NCBI GenBank assembly: GCA_016342655.1 | Contig: JAEINL010000017.1 | Location: 1-60,362 of the forward strand | DNA length: 60,362 nt | From: Sphaerochaeta sp. | GTDB lineage: Bacteria > Spirochaetota > Spirochaetia > Sphaerochaetales > Sphaerochaetaceae | Direction of reading: 5' to 3' | Part shown: piece after piece, positions 11,651 through 16,755 of the stretch | Layout: the number at the start of each line of letters is the position of its first letter | How positions within the stretch are numbered: position 1 is the stretch's first letter | The notes under the pieces: generated by a model | What the model was told of the DNA's origin: nothing | Database searches by the model: none | Seen by the model: the letters and a program-made list of their open reading frames with translations, nothing else | Position numbers and translations under genes: made by a program

Positions 11651-11682
11651 AGGCAACCACCTGAAGGATCAGGTGGTTGCCT
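11651..11682 (+). terminator. Stem-loop terminator; left copy of a repeat
   Basis: A perfect 14-bp stem (AGGCAACCACCTGA and its complement) with an AGGA loop, 41 nt after the oxidoreductase operon. A near copy (2-3 changes) stands at 16724-16755, so the two bracket the acyl-ligase/HsdMS unit. Confidence 0.75.
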
Positions 11683-11790: not shown

Positions 11791-12097
11791 GACTTCTCTG
11801 ACCGTATACAGAAGACTCAAGAATTCCTTGCATACAGCATCCGTGGTGCTTACGATCCGATCAACAGGCACTTTACCATGTCGCTTCTTTTCTTCGAAAA
11901 ACTGATGTAATGTGCATTTATAATTACATTTAAAGGAATATTGTTTTTATAGGTACTAGTATAAATAGGAATCGTTGACAGCTTTACAGTAATGGGGAAC
12001 ATTAGACACAAGACCAAAGAAATTTCGGACATATGATTGTCATCATCGATCTTCGTTGCAAAGATGGCAAGAGTGTCCATCTGCAGGAGGGTAAAAT
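11791..12097. other. Intergenic stretch before the acyl-ligase gene
   Basis: No convincing gene. A reverse-strand frame from about 11945 down to 11700 is open but lacks a start with a ribosome site and matches nothing I recognise. A TTGACA at 11975-11980 could be a -35 box for the next gene, but no good -10 follows at the proper distance. The AGGAGGG at 12084-12090 is the strong ribosome site of the acyl ligase. Confidence 0.4.
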
Positions 12098-13813
12098 ATG
12101 AGAACAAAAGATTCCTTCACACCATGGGACATGCTGTATCCCTATAAGGGCACGATGTACCACGCAACGTGGCCTACCCTCAAGGAACTTTTTGAGATAA
12201 CTGTCAAACGCTTTGGGCCGCGGGTCTGCTGGAAAGAGTTCGTACCAAATCCTGTTTCCTATACATATAGTGAAGCCTTGGTCATTGTGAAAGGAATCTC
12301 CTCTTGGCTCATTAGTTCTGGTATCAGAAAGGGCGACAAGGTCATTGTCAGCGGGAAGAACAGCGTTGCCTGGGGATTCGGATATTTTGCTGTCCTATTT
12401 GCAGGAGCCACCGTTGTCCCCTTGGACAATGCCTTAAGTGACGAGGACTTCATCAAACTATCAGAGTTCTCCGATTCTGTCGCGATGTTTGCTGACAGCA
12501 ACAGACTCATGAAAGTTGCCTCAAAACTCCCTCTGAAGGCCGTTGCATGCCTTGAGGATAACGGACCGGTCGAATGGATTATGCGCAAGAAAGCGGAAAA
12601 CATCGAGGCTGAACCATGCAATGAAGATGACATTGCACAAATAATCTTCACCTCAGGGACAACTGGCACTCCGAAGGGAGTCATGTTGTCCCATAAGAAT
12701 CTAGTCTCGGACATCTTCCTCTCACAGGCAAACATGAATATTTTTGAGACGGACGTGTTCTATGCAATTCTGCCAATACACCATGCCTATACGCTTCTAT
12801 CCGTACTTCTTGTAGCACTGGGCGTTGGTGCCTCCGTTGTCTTCGGCAAGAAACTTGTCGTATCACAAATACTCAAGGAACTGAAGGAAGGCGAGGTAAC
12901 AATGTTCCTTGGCGTTCCAATACTCTTCAACAAAATGTATGCTGCTGTTGTCGATGGGCTGAAGAAAAAGGGGTTGCTTGTCTACGGATTAATACGGGGC
13001 CTCATGGGCATCTCAGGATGGCTCAAGAGAACGTTTGGGATCAATGTCGGAAAACATTGGTTTAAATTCCTGCTTAAGAAGCTCTCGCTCGATACCAACA
13101 GAATATGTATCTGCGGGGGTGGTCCACTCCCCGAATCGACGTTCAGAGGATTCAACGAACTTGGCATCGATTTCGTACAAGGATATGGACTTACCGAAAC
13201 TTCCCCTATCACCCATCTCAATCCAATCTATGCGTTTATCGAATCCTCAGTAGGAAAGGCCGTTGCAAGTACCGAGTGCAAGATAGTGAATCCTGACGAA
13301 GACGGAAACGGCCTGATTTACATTCGTGGCCCCCAGGTAATGAAAGGATACTACAAGAACCCTGAAGCTACAGCTGAAGTGCTTGACCAGGATGGATGGC
13401 TCAATACAGGGGACATTGGACAAGTGGATGAGAACAACTACCTATACCTGAGTGGGAGGGCAAAGTCAGTTATCGTGAGCGACGGGGGAAAGAACGTTTT
13501 CCCAGAAGAGATTGAGGATAAGTTTCAGCTCTACTCAGAAATTGAGCAGCTTTGCGTAATTGGATACATCAAAAACAAGCAAAGTGCCGGTGAGCGTGTG
13601 AGGATTATCATACTTCCCACCGAGGAATTTGCCGAAGGCAAGACTTCCGAAGCGATTCAGGAGAGAATGGATCATATAGTCAGAGAGGTCAATGCCACCC
13701 TTCTTCCCTATAAGAGAATAGAGATGGTCACTGTGGTTGACGAACCTCTTTCAATGACCTCATCCAAGAAGGTCAGACGTTCTGAGGTTTCTAGGACATA
13801 TGAAATTGCATAA
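12098..13813 (+). CDS. AMP-forming acyl-CoA synthetase / acyl ligase (FadD-like)
   Basis: A 571-residue adenylating enzyme that should activate a carboxylic acid as acyl-AMP and pass it to CoA or another acceptor. Motifs in order: phosphate loop FTSGTTGTPKGVMLSHKN (about 184-201), YGLTETSP near 360, NTGDIG near 436, GRAKSVIVSDGGKNVFPEEI near 453-473, and the C-terminal catalytic lysine in TSSKKVRR near 558. All catalytic residues are kept, so it should be active. The fatty-acid-binding region resembles long-chain synthetases. It overlaps the HsdMS-like gene by 14 bp. Such a partner is unusual and suggests the pair acts together. Confidence 0.9.
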   Translation: MRTKDSFTPWDMLYPYKGTMYHATWPTLKELFEITVKRFGPRVCWKEFVPNPVSYTYSEALVIVKGISSWLISSGIRKGDKVIVSGKNSVAWGFGYFAVLFAGATVVPLDNALSDEDFIKLSEFSDSVAMFADSNRLMKVASKLPLKAVACLEDNGPVEWIMRKKAENIEAEPCNEDDIAQIIFTSGTTGTPKGVMLSHKNLVSDIFLSQANMNIFETDVFYAILPIHHAYTLLSVLLVALGVGASVVFGKKLVVSQILKELKEGEVTMFLGVPILFNKMYAAVVDGLKKKGLLVYGLIRGLMGISGWLKRTFGINVGKHWFKFLLKKLSLDTNRICICGGGPLPESTFRGFNELGIDFVQGYGLTETSPITHLNPIYAFIESSVGKAVASTECKIVNPDEDGNGLIYIRGPQVMKGYYKNPEATAEVLDQDGWLNTGDIGQVDENNYLYLSGRAKSVIVSDGGKNVFPEEIEDKFQLYSEIEQLCVIGYIKNKQSAGERVRIIILPTEEFAEGKTSEAIQERMDHIVREVNATLLPYKRIEMVTVVDEPLSMTSSKKVRRSEVSRTYEIA

Positions 13814-16511
13814 GGGAGAAGAGACTGAGGAAACGTACATACATCCTACCAAAGAGGGCATGCTTATTGAGTCATGGAAGATTGCCGAGGTACTAGAGCA
13901 CCGTTTTCATGGATGGGATTCCCGTCGTTACATCATTGCAATGCTTATCTATAGGTATCTTTCACAGGAAATGGAGCAGTTTACCGAGGGGCGAGCGCAA
14001 CTGTTGTGCGATGAGTCAAAATATCGAACTATGGATGACGAGGAAGCAGAAGCTCTAACAGAAGAGGCCTCTTCCAGCATAGGATTCTTCATTCCTCCAA
14101 GCGGCCTATTCTGTAACGTATACAGGGACGCCCCGATAGATGGAAACCTTGGAAAGACCCTAGAATGGGTCTTTTCCGACATCGAAGAATCTTCGATCGG
14201 CTTCGCGAATGAGAGCGTCTTTAGAAATCAGTCGAGCCATCTTGACCTAGACGGATCAGGACTTGATCCTATTCCTAAAAAGAGGAAGAAGAAGCTTTAC
14301 TGCCTGATGAAAGAAGTGTCAAATGTTTGTTCTGATGCCATATCTGATATGGCAAGTACCTTTGAATTTATTCTTGACCAGTATTCCAGGCCAATGGCTA
14401 CTGGTGAAGGAATGTTCGAAGTACGGCTTGTTCCAGACCTACTAATACTCCTCGTTTGCAGAGGAAGAAAAGATTTGCAGTCGTTCTATGACCCCTACTG
14501 CGGCCCAGGTGTGTTGCTCTCACATGCACGCTCCAGACTTGCTTCCGAAGGCTGTCTGTACGGTCAGAGCGAAACCATAACAGAGTACAATCTGGCCCGC
14601 TCTTTCATGTTCCTCATACACCTCGATCCAACCCGTTTTTCACTGGCGTATGGTGACTCGCTCACTTCTTTCGATACCTTTGGGGGGTGTACGTTTGACA
14701 TGATTGCCAGCATACTCCCCAAGAGAAAACGATGGGTTGGAGATGATGATCTATCCCTTGTGAAGGACAGACGTTTCAGTCCTGCCGGCGTTCTGGCTCC
14801 GAAGTCAAAAGCAGACTTGGCATACGTCATGCACTCAGTATCATGCCTCTCGGAATGTGGAACTGCAGCATTCGCTCTTTCTGAAGGAAGCCTGAGCAGG
14901 GAAAGGTCTGAGAAAGAGATACGAAGATGGCTTCTGGACAATAACCTTGTTGATGCCGTCATAAGAATTCCGACCGATGGACTTCAATTGTATAAAATGC
15001 ATCGGTATGTGCTTGTTGTCCGAAAGGGAAGAAGTGAACGTACCATCCTCTTCATCAATGCGTCTTCCCAAAAAAGAAACAAAAGTTTTTGCTTCGTAAT
15101 GGTCGGGGAAATATCCCATATATTCAACGAAAGAAAGGAAGTGCCAAACTATTCACGTCTTGTGGACAGAAGCGAGGTCCTCGCTAACGGATGTGATCTT
15201 ACGCCTTTTCTCTATGTTGAGAGAAGTCACCCTTGTGGAGAGGAAATGGGGACGTCGCTTTCGAAAGCCCTTGAAGAAATTTCGACTGAGCTTGCATCAT
15301 TGGCTTTTTCCTCTTCATCTCTTGAGTCGTTGGTGAGAAAGCTTGAGCTTGCACCTCTCCAACCTGTTGGTGCATTGGCAATTGTCAAAATGGGAAAAAA
15401 TGCAAAGGCAAATGAGTTTATCGATGCCCCTGAAGGAATTGATTACGTCAGGATATCAGACCTTGCATGCAGATTCAGCGAAAACACATTCGTCAATCAT
15501 TCAGCACTCAAAGTCTCACCGAATGCAGCCTCTACAAGGATTTTTGAAAGAAATACTGTTCTTATTCCCAAGAATGCCACCAGCATCAAATCAGGCAGAC
15601 GGGGAATTCTGTCAAAAAGATCGGCTGTAGATGGAAACCTCTTGTGCCTTGTTCCACGAGGAGAGTTATTAGAGGAGTACCTTTTACATTCGTTCGGGTC
15701 TTGGACTCGTAGCGTGTGGCTCAAAAGAACTGACCGTAAGGAAATACTGAGGCTTTCCGATACCTTAGATGCCATGATCAAGGTTCCCTCTGCAACGATA
15801 CAGAAGCAAGTCAACGAAACAATAGGTTCCCTTGAAAAATCCGAGCGCTTGATGAAAAAAAAGAGCTACCTGTTGAGAAGGCTCTTGGTTAAACGTTTGG
15901 AGGAGCTCATCGCGTCTACTTCTGATGAGCCTCGCGTACCTATTTCTGCTGTTGCAGAAGTCTTGAAGATCCCTGGATACAAGTACAACAAGTTTGTAAG
16001 GTACTCTGAGTCTGGAACGTGTATCGCCCTTAGAGGATGCAACGTGAAGAACGGGCGCCTTGACCTGTCAAGCTCCCAACGACTTGACGATAAGATCCTG
16101 TATGAGATCAGCTGCGCTCTTCTGCATAAAGGAGATATCCTGTTCACCTTTGTCGGAACTCCGGGTCATGTAGCTGTGGTAGATAGCGATGACCGCTACT
16201 ATCTGGAGCCTGATGTGGCCCTGATCAAAGTTGATAAGACAAAGGTGCTTCCTGAATATCTTTGCTACTGGTACCAGAACAGCCCGGCATGCAGGATTGA
16301 CATCGCAAGTGATGTTAAACCTATGGGCAGAAGGAGCATTCCCTTCGATCGTATACGGAAATTCAAGGTGAGCCTGCCCCCATTAGGACGGCAACAGGAA
16401 ATCGTCGAAGAGCTCGAAACAGGATTCATAGCAAGGATTACTGAGGTGGAGAGAGCGATGTCAGAATCTCATAGAAGGCTTGAAATGGTCATTTCCAAGC
16501 TGACTCTGTGA
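13800..16511 (+). CDS. HsdM-HsdS fusion with degenerate methyltransferase motif
   Basis: A 903-residue protein. Residues about 35-215 are the helical N-terminal domain of type I M subunits (HGWDSRRYIIAMLIYRYLSQ). The methyltransferase fold follows: motif I DPYCGPGVLL near 230, then FDMIASILPKRKRW near 299, where active enzymes have NPPY/F (here ILPK), and the family signature FSPAGVLAPKSKADLAYVMH near 325. Without Asn-Pro-Pro-Tyr, N6-adenine methylation is not expected. Residues about 515-903 are an S subunit with two target-recognition domains, each followed by a long helix (QKQVNETIGSLEKSERLMKK and RQQEIVEELETGFIARITEV). Type I M and S are normally separate; no HsdR is near. ATG at 13800 with AGGA upstream, 14 bp inside the acyl ligase. 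Likely a DNA-recognition or silencing protein. Confidence 0.85.
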   Translation: MKLHKGEETEETYIHPTKEGMLIESWKIAEVLEHRFHGWDSRRYIIAMLIYRYLSQEMEQFTEGRAQLLCDESKYRTMDDEEAEALTEEASSSIGFFIPPSGLFCNVYRDAPIDGNLGKTLEWVFSDIEESSIGFANESVFRNQSSHLDLDGSGLDPIPKKRKKKLYCLMKEVSNVCSDAISDMASTFEFILDQYSRPMATGEGMFEVRLVPDLLILLVCRGRKDLQSFYDPYCGPGVLLSHARSRLASEGCLYGQSETITEYNLARSFMFLIHLDPTRFSLAYGDSLTSFDTFGGCTFDMIASILPKRKRWVGDDDLSLVKDRRFSPAGVLAPKSKADLAYVMHSVSCLSECGTAAFALSEGSLSRERSEKEIRRWLLDNNLVDAVIRIPTDGLQLYKMHRYVLVVRKGRSERTILFINASSQKRNKSFCFVMVGEISHIFNERKEVPNYSRLVDRSEVLANGCDLTPFLYVERSHPCGEEMGTSLSKALEEISTELASLAFSSSSLESLVRKLELAPLQPVGALAIVKMGKNAKANEFIDAPEGIDYVRISDLACRFSENTFVNHSALKVSPNAASTRIFERNTVLIPKNATSIKSGRRGILSKRSAVDGNLLCLVPRGELLEEYLLHSFGSWTRSVWLKRTDRKEILRLSDTLDAMIKVPSATIQKQVNETIGSLEKSERLMKKKSYLLRRLLVKRLEELIASTSDEPRVPISAVAEVLKIPGYKYNKFVRYSESGTCIALRGCNVKNGRLDLSSSQRLDDKILYEISCALLHKGDILFTFVGTPGHVAVVDSDDRYYLEPDVALIKVDKTKVLPEYLCYWYQNSPACRIDIASDVKPMGRRSIPFDRIRKFKVSLPPLGRQQEIVEELETGFIARITEVERAMSESHRRLEMVISKLTL

Positions 16512-16547
16512 TTCATTCCTTAGTCCGTTAACGGACTAAGGAATGAA
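16512..16547. repeat. Perfect 36-bp palindrome directly after the HsdMS-like gene
   Basis: The sequence from 16512 to 16547 equals its own reverse complement, centred on GTTAAC, with no loop and no T-run. It begins one base after the TGA stop. It could be a bidirectional terminator, a cruciform, or a binding site for the protein just encoded. Confidence 0.75.
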
Positions 16548-16723
16548 GAGGAAGTTGTGTTCCATGCAGTCACGCAATGGAGGAAGAAAAAACCCACATG
16601 CGATATTCTTTAGCATAGGCTCAAGAGCGATTAGGACAATGCACACTGCTTTCATATTCCGTTGAATCTACTACAGAGAATTTCAGTATCAAGCACAAAC
16701 AAGGAGGGAACCCTCTGCTCTTA
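16548..16723. other. Gene-free spacer right of the HsdMS unit
   Basis: No open frame with a ribosome site and no recognised remnant on either strand. GGGAACCCTC (16707-16716) holds a short inverted repeat just before the right stem-loop. Confidence 0.4.
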
Positions 16724-16755
16724 AGGCAACCACCCGAAGGCTCAGGTGGTTGCCC
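16724..16755 (-). terminator. Stem-loop; right copy of the repeat
   Basis: Same core as 11651-11682 (AGGCAACCACC...GGTGGTTGCC) with two substitutions in the shared 31 bp, one weakening the stem. It probably ends the reverse-strand sugar operon that stops at 16840. Confidence 0.65.

What the first reader, a model, noticed from the sequence alone, without database searches (positions are those of the whole stretch)
12098..16511. Acyl-adenylating enzyme translationally coupled to the HsdMS-like protein
Seen: the acyl-ligase gene overlaps the HsdMS-like gene by 14 bp behind one strong ribosome site. Both are long and well formed, and the ligase keeps all its motifs. I know no restriction, BREX, DISARM or other defence system that pairs an AMP-forming acyl ligase with an inactive M-S fusion. 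Inference: the ligase makes an acyl-AMP or acyl-CoA signal, or acylates the partner, and the DNA-reading protein triggers or restrains it, possibly in phage defence or lipid control.
Basis: inference. Interest (0 to 1): 0.85.

Follow-up and report, generated by a model that had tools for sequence, protein, structure and literature searches.

The report
Mobile lipid cassette with dead methyltransferase
In some Sphaerochaeta bacteria two fatty-acid enzymes travel together with a DNA-reading protein that looks like a DNA methyltransferase but has lost its catalytic motif, an arrangement that matched no described system in my searches and that may let a DNA sensor control lipid chemistry.

Summary
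In detail: a 571-aa AMP-forming acyl ligase with its motifs intact overlaps a 903-aa HsdM~HsdS fusion by 14 bp. It is not accidental. In the genus (Sphaerochaeta) both genes occur in the same 8 of 26 genomes; 7 show the junction, each with the same overlap; the eighth is split by contig ends. Seven of the 8 are one clade, so this is two lineages, not eight events. The pair is part of a larger unit: in 7 of 8 an acyl-ACP thioesterase gene follows (with an in-frame stop in one). The window copy lost it but keeps about 40 bp of its 3' end. The unit moved horizontally (ligase 90% identical where core genes are 66%). Both lipid genes have their nearest relatives in the same five sister-genus genomes. 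The fusion has the HsdM fold and a two-TRD S part, but motif IV (NPPY) is SILP in 7 of 7 readable copies, while 109 of 109 ordinary HsdM keep it; it remains under purifying selection. Best reading: a non-methylating, sequence-specific DNA-binding protein that controls a mobile acyl-chain-diverting module. Whether this is phage defence or lipid control is undecided, and function is unmeasured. No system in the libraries and papers searched matches.

The parts
11882..12097 (+). conserved leader/promoter region of the cassette; TTGACA at 11975-11980
   Evidence: blastn of five other loci against the window begins at 11882 (three), 11890 and 11913; alignment of 8 leaders; TTGACA read by eye
12033..12101 (+). 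candidate 22-codon upstream ORF (MIVIIDLRCKDGKSVHLQEGKI) whose TGA overlaps the ligase ATG
   Evidence: open in 8 of 8 leaders, through a 3-bp indel; the stop overlaps the ligase ATG in 7, and in G010 (L043) it ends 2 bp before the ATG; no evidence of translation
12098..13813 (+). AMP-forming acyl(-CoA) ligase, FadD-like, 571 aa
   Evidence: PF00501, PF23562; motifs intact; pairwise dN/dS 0.07-0.15
13800..13813 (+). 14-bp overlap of ligase end and HsdMS start
   Evidence: same in 7 of 7 junctions readable
13800..16511 (+). HsdM~HsdS fusion, 903 aa: M-like part about 25-477, TRD regions about 520-690 and 712-876, long helices 665-706 and 862-902; motif I DPYCGPG kept, motif IV NPPY replaced by SILP
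   Evidence: domains; alignments; motif census; model; Foldseek
16514..16545 (.). perfect 32-bp palindrome at the place of the lost thioesterase
   Evidence: only copy in the own genome at up to 3 mismatches
16548..16587 (+). remnant of the acyl-ACP thioesterase 3' end (reads EEVVFHAVTQWRKK)
   Evidence: 90-92.5% over 33-40 bp to four of five loci, 85% over 33 bp to L038; translation
11652..11681 (.). left copy of a terminator-like palindrome flanking the cassette
   Evidence: two places in the genome, both flanking the cassette
16725..16754 (.). right copy of the same palindrome
   Evidence: a related palindrome lies near the end of the orthologous neighbour gene in G021 (L117)

Best explanation
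It is a mobile three-gene cassette (ligase - HsdM~S - acyl-ACP thioesterase; the last lost in this copy). The thioesterase would release fatty acid from acyl-ACP and the ligase would adenylate it and pass it to CoA (or an unknown acceptor), so together they pull acyl chains out of fatty-acid synthesis. The HsdM~S protein binds a fixed bipartite DNA sequence with its two TRDs but does not methylate; it acts as the switch, most likely by binding DNA at or near the cassette's own promoter and coupling output to the state of its target DNA (methylation by another enzyme, titration by incoming DNA) or to S-adenosylmethionine at the retained motif I. Shown by sequence: linkage, order, overlap, transfer as a unit, loss of the catalytic motif, purifying selection, no sign of TRD exchange. 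Inferred: DNA binding, regulatory role, enzyme activities, lipid outcome.
For: Same 8 of 26 genomes carry ligase and fusion; 7 of 26 carry the cassette thioesterase, its ATG 16 nt after the fusion's stop in 7 of 7. Horizontal unit: window vs G001 ligase 90% identity, pS 0.43, fusion pS 0.52, against median 66% identity and pS 0.79 for 24 other ORF pairs; in the tree the window genome's housekeeping ligase groups with those of G021, G020 and G006 (96/88), in which no cassette was found (G021 and G006 are incomplete). Both lipid genes have nearest relatives, among 139 genomes of the order, in the same five sister-genus genomes (ligase 63-65%; tree 99/93; thioesterase 47-50%). Fusion: best PDB fold match is a Type I M subunit (3lkd, TM to target 0.82); motif IV lost in 7 of 7 readable copies, present in 109 of 109 ordinary HsdM loci; dN/dS 0.22-0.34; between the two lineages TRD1 60-65%, TRD2 68-73%, M part 72-74% identical, so no sign of TRD exchange. 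Precedent: an inactive EcoRII M mutant still represses its own gene when its sites are methylated (PMC12707154, passage).
Against: No DNA target or operator is identified; the leader has only short dyads that differ between copies. The fusion's dN/dS is two to three times the ligase's. The window copy lost the thioesterase yet keeps the other two, so the full set is not strictly needed. In G010 the fusion is frame-broken while ligase and thioesterase are open; comM and dprA on that contig are broken too, so contig errors are likely but not proven. G025's thioesterase has one in-frame stop. Eight genomes amount to two lineages.
Confidence: 0.4

Rival explanations
1. Anti-phage system: the HsdM~S protein patrols DNA and, on meeting foreign or inhibitor-bound targets, releases or activates the lipid enzymes by protein contact, draining acyl-ACP/ATP or altering the membrane so the infected cell stops (logic like EcoprrI holding PrrC).
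For: Horizontal transfer of the unit; in the other genomes the cassette lies in a variable region; genes near it or at the same place in cassette-less genomes include Fic, AlbA/Schlafen, DUF6577, DUF6088 with AbiEii; the translational overlap fits equimolar partners; a Type I complex is known to hold a latent effector (PMC3874165 passage).
Against: No PADLOC family for the ligase; no HsdR in the window or the cassette loci (tblastn with three HsdR); the window copy is not in such a region; TRDs show no exchange; no cassette found in viral contigs, phages or plasmids; no paper found.
Confidence: 0.27
2. Passenger: a degenerate methylase~S gene was trapped between two useful lipid genes and is retained by translational coupling or slow decay.
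For: Loss of motif IV; higher dN/dS than its neighbours; frame-broken in G010.
Against: dN/dS 0.22-0.34 over about 900 codons, open frame in 6 of 6 full-length copies other than G010; the stretch that replaces motif IV is itself conserved in both lineages.
Confidence: 0.15
3. Plain accessory lipid operon: ligase and thioesterase supply acyl-CoA or free fatty acid for an accessory lipid, and the fusion has an unrelated role (for example masking of methylation sites).
For: Both neighbours are relatives of chromosomal lipid genes of the same family.
Against: Unit transfer with the fusion in the middle and a conserved overlap.
Confidence: 0.13
4. The fusion is still a methyltransferase using a non-canonical catalytic motif.
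For: Motif I is kept in 7 of 7 readable copies; the M part is predicted with fair to good confidence.
Against: NPPY is SILP in 7 of 7; in M.TaqI the first two residues of NPPY hold the flipped adenine's amino group (PMC3874165 passage).
Confidence: 0.05

Closest known systems
Type I restriction-modification methyltransferase (HsdM + HsdS; nearest solved EcoR124I M 7bst and S. thermophilus M 3lkd)
   Same: HsdM_N and N6_Mtase domains, SAM motif I, S part with two TRD regions and two long helices, HsdM fold
   Different: M and S fused in one chain, motif IV lost, no HsdR beside it, flanked by lipid genes
EcoprrI-PrrC (latent effector held by a Type I complex)
   Same: a Type I-like DNA-reading protein encoded in one operon with a non-restriction enzyme
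   Different: there a conventional Type IC R-M system embeds an anticodon nuclease; here no HsdR, a dead M and acyl enzymes
Methyltransferases that repress their own operon (EcoRII M, SsoII M)
   Same: a methyltransferase used as a DNA-binding regulator; an inactive EcoRII M mutant still represses
   Different: EcoRII M has a fused repressor domain and acts on its own R-M gene; here the Type I architecture itself would bind and the targets would be lipid genes
FadD-like acyl-CoA ligases (PF00501) and bacterial acyl-ACP thioesterases (PF01643/PF20791)
   Same: domain content and motifs; nearest relatives found are chromosomal genes of the same family
   Different: brought together around an HsdM~S gene and horizontally mobile

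Membership tests
Type I R-M methyltransferase | HsdM N-terminal and N6_Mtase domains with HsdM fold | tested here: met
   (TIGR00497 240.8 bits, just under its 242.75 cut-off)
Type I R-M methyltransferase | S part with two TRDs | tested here: met
   Methylase_S 761-874 and PADLOC Specificity_I matches over 524-872; TRD folds not resolved in the model (pLDDT under 50)
Type I R-M methyltransferase | catalytic motif IV (N/D/S)PP(Y/F/W) | tested here: not met
   absent in 7 of 7 readable cassette copies, present in 109 of 109 comparison loci (29 phylum, 80 viral; 105 distinct proteins)
Type I R-M system | HsdR encoded nearby | tested here: not met
   tblastn with three Sphaerochaetaceae HsdR finds none in the 60-kb window or in the cassette loci L037-L043 and L110, but finds their own loci; the rest of the genomes not examined
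EcoprrI-PrrC type guard | active Type I enzyme plus anticodon nuclease | tested here: not met
   dead M, no HsdR, other two genes are lipid enzymes
Known anti-phage systems in PADLOC 2.0.0 | recognised system genes besides Type I M/S | tested here: not met
   ligase 0 families at E up to 1; of the fusion's 92 families the 25 shown are Type I M/S and mad5; the thioesterase was not scanned against PADLOC
AMP-forming acyl-CoA ligase | PF00501 with core adenylation motifs and C-terminal lysine region | tested here: met
   (window copy); five motifs in 7 of 8 copies, four in G025, which is cut by its contig end
AMP-forming acyl-CoA ligase | acyl-CoA synthesis activity and chain length | not testable with these tools
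   needs enzyme assay
Acyl-ACP thioesterase | PF01643 + PF20791 | tested here: met
   (G001 copy only); DYNxHVNN in 7 of 7 copies (catalytic role recalled)
Methyltransferase-derived transcription regulator | binds own operon control region | not testable with these tools
   no target known; leader conservation only

The most novel reading that the evidence does not exclude
A new kind of mobile system in which a Type I-derived pseudo-methyltransferase works as a DNA-state sensor whose effectors are lipid enzymes: on sensing non-self or unmodified DNA it unleashes a thioesterase-ligase pair, taken from host fatty-acid metabolism, that diverts acyl chains and stops the infected cell.
Probability: 0.22. 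Interest if true: 0.92.

Novelty: categorically new. Interest (0 to 1): 0.62.

Why it matters
If the fusion controls the two enzymes, it would be the first case I know of in which a restriction-derived DNA reader, stripped of methylation, governs lipid metabolism. It would link DNA recognition with membrane chemistry and widen the range of effectors that DNA-sensing systems may use. It is directly testable with three genes in a laboratory host. Even as a lipid regulator only, it would be a new use of the Type I M~S scaffold.

Tried and rejected
Accidental adjacency: rejected. Phage- or plasmid-borne cassette: no cassette-like match in viral contigs (fusion alignment, thioesterase, 19-bp leader pattern, G001 fusion); no record with one place covering at least 80% of the fusion in plasmids (0 of 1838 matching records) or phages (0 of 29). 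These scans find mainly close relatives. A wider family of full-length fusions: of 392 genomes drawn evenly from the phylum, 38 matched at E <= 1e-60; only the window's own match covered the S part, the other 37 end by profile position 519 with open frames of 443-575 aa (at most two candidates scored per genome). The two genome-contig scans gave nothing and then two Sphaerochaeta records already held as G010 and G014. The same search was not possible outside the phylum except through those scans.

Structure: mean pLDDT is 57.5; only the M part and the long helices are usable, so TRDs were not compared by structure. Leader analysis gave no convincing operator. GC of the cassette does not stand out, so composition gave no sign of transfer; that claim rests on synonymous divergence and the tree. 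Literature (open-licence PMC papers only): six term searches for ligase or thioesterase with restriction or phage defence, or for pseudo-methyltransferase regulators, gave no relevant paper (none; one, unrelated by title). One search listed two papers; I read passages of one, PMC12707154. One search listed 8 of 17; I read passages of PMC3874165. Searches listed nothing relevant by title. No paper was read whole. That the ligase acylates the fusion was considered and dropped: nothing bears on it.

Full report
What is there. The window (G000:C107) carries at 12098-13813 an AMP-forming acyl ligase and at 13800-16511 an HsdM~HsdS fusion, overlapping by 14 bp. Pfam, NCBIfam and PADLOC agree on the fusion's domains; PADLOC has no family for the ligase. 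The ligase has its core adenylation motifs. The fusion aligns with EcoR124I HsdM over residues 24-477 and continues into an S part (Methylase_S 761-874; PADLOC Specificity_I over 524-872). An AlphaFold model (27 rows, mean pLDDT 57.5) is usable mainly for the M part; it shows two long helices (665-706, 862-902). Foldseek's best PDB match is the Type I M subunit 3lkd (TM to target 0.82), followed by EcoR124I M chains.

The methyltransferase has lost its catalytic motif. Where ordinary HsdM read SNPPYS, the cassette proteins read SILP followed by a basic stretch; the pattern DxIASILPx(R/K)K(R/L)W is kept in both lineages. I counted NPP-type motif IV by regular expression in 109 ordinary HsdM loci (29 phylum, 80 viral; 105 distinct proteins): 109 of 109 have it; a strict motif I expression matched 102 of 109. 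In the cassette 7 of 7 readable copies lack motif IV and keep DPxCGxG. The expression was sought anywhere in the protein, so it may overcount motif IV in the controls; the comparison loci were chosen by similarity to HsdM.

Conserved linkage. Among 149 genomes of relatives the fusion was found at 55-70% identity in 7 genomes besides the window's, all of the same genus; matches in other genomes are 38% or less. Among 26 genomes of the genus the ligase at 87% or more occurs in the same 8 genomes; two other ligase paralogues (57-59% and 42-45% where full length; partial matches 50-66%) are widespread. The junction with its 14-bp overlap is readable in 7 of 8 genomes and the same in all 7. In G025 ligase and fusion lie at the ends of two contigs. 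Record titles identify two of the genomes as Sphaerochaeta.

A third gene. In 7 of 8 genomes an acyl-ACP thioesterase (PF01643, PF20791 for the G001 copy) begins 16 nt after the fusion's stop (7 of 7; G025's copy has an in-frame stop). The window genome has only its ordinary, 33%-identical thioesterase. But directly behind the fusion, at 16548-16587, it keeps 33-40 bp matching the end of the cassette thioesterase, next to a perfect 32-bp palindrome that is unique in the genome. So the ancestral unit was ligase - HsdM~S - thioesterase, and this copy lost the third gene.

Origin and movement. A maximum-likelihood tree of 42 ligases puts the 8 cassette ligases in one clade (100/100), with ligases of a sister genus (g16) beside them (99/93). 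Among 139 genomes of the order, the same five g16 genomes have the closest ligases (63-65%) and thioesterases (47-50%). There the two genes lie apart: the thioesterase follows an RsmD-like gene in 4 of 5 loci, and the ligase lies beside a YhbY gene in 2 of 5, the other three being cut by contig ends on that side. The ordinary Sphaerochaeta copies have the same neighbours (PF03602 and PF01985). So two chromosomal lipid genes of one lineage appear to have been brought together around the fusion. In the housekeeping rows of the tree (25 of 26 genomes) the window genome groups with G021, G020 and G006, in which no cassette was found (G021 and G006 are incomplete assemblies), and the other seven carriers form one clade (97/88) whose sister G003 lacks it. 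Between the window genome and G001 the cassette ligase is 90% identical (pS 0.43) and the fusion has pS 0.52, while 24 other ORF pairs have median identity 66% and pS 0.79 (only pairs over 45% BLAST identity and 100 aa were kept, and ORFs were called mechanically). This supports horizontal transfer of the unit; it also means the eight carriers represent two lineages. Composition does not mark the cassette.

Selection. Pairwise dN/dS is 0.07-0.15 for the ligase (7 genomes), 0.22-0.34 for the fusion (6) and 0.11-0.26 for the thioesterase (6) (Nei-Gojobori; G025 left out of all three, G010 left out of the fusion, G000 has no thioesterase). Between the two lineages TRD1 is 60-65%, TRD2 68-73% and the M part 72-74% identical, so there is no sign of TRD exchange and the target is probably fixed. 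Contrary evidence: in G010 the fusion is broken by small indels, but comM and dprA on that contig are broken too, so I do not count it as decay.

Surroundings. In all seven other genomes rayT follows the thioesterase; the block rayT-dprA-comM is read in 5 of 7, the other two (G014, G025) being cut by contig ends within rayT. The left neighbours vary. Genes near the cassette or at the same spot in cassette-less genomes include DUF6577 and Fic (G019), AlbA/Schlafen (G003, G005), DUF4062 (G005), an IrrE-like peptidase (G014), and, about 9 kb beyond comM in G001, DUF6088 with AbiEii. In G017 the left side of the cassette holds a 78-bp copy of the rayT 3' end, and in G005, without cassette, a 62-bp copy lies beyond other accessory genes. 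No HsdR lies in the window or the cassette loci. The window copy lies between sugar-transport-type genes (read from the ORFs), flanked by two near-identical palindromes found nowhere else in the genome.

How it may work. The enzymes suggest acyl-ACP to free fatty acid to acyl-AMP/acyl-CoA. The fusion suggests fixed-sequence DNA binding without methylation, with a possible SAM site. The simplest mechanism is that the fusion is the switch of the cassette, an operator-binding regulator whose binding depends on DNA state or competing DNA. Precedents, from passages read: an inactive EcoRII methyltransferase mutant still represses its own gene if its sites are methylated by another enzyme (PMC12707154), and a Type I complex can hold a latent effector, PrrC (PMC3874165; PMC12707154). 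Defence by contact is the main rival. Nothing here measures DNA binding, catalysis or phage resistance.

Verdict. Its function is open. Composition and history fit no system in the libraries, collections or papers searched; I rate the arrangement new, with the function unproven.

Noticed in passing
window 12033-12101: A short upstream ORF, open in 8 of 8 leaders through a 3-bp indel, ends at the ligase start; it could be a leader peptide or chance.
   Followed up: partly
L039 6870-6947; L113 10210-10271: Copies of 78 and 62 bp of the rayT (Y1 transposase) 3' end lie on the far side of accessory genes, suggesting the rayT end is an integration hot spot in Sphaerochaeta.
   Followed up: partly
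window 16514-16545: Perfect 32-bp palindrome, the only copy in the genome, fills the gap left by the lost thioesterase.
   Followed up: partly
window 11652-11681 and 16725-16754: Two near-identical terminator-like palindromes occur only at the two flanks of the cassette in this genome.
   Followed up: partly
L182, L184 (sister genus g16): Tandem acyl ligase paralogues in the sister genus.
   Followed up: no
L043 (G010:C29): comM, dprA and the HsdM~S gene are all frame-broken on one contig, pointing to indel errors in that assembly.
   Followed up: partly
L039 1-3714: A large protein with ten YDG-domain stretches lies a few kb left of the cassette in G017.
   Followed up: no
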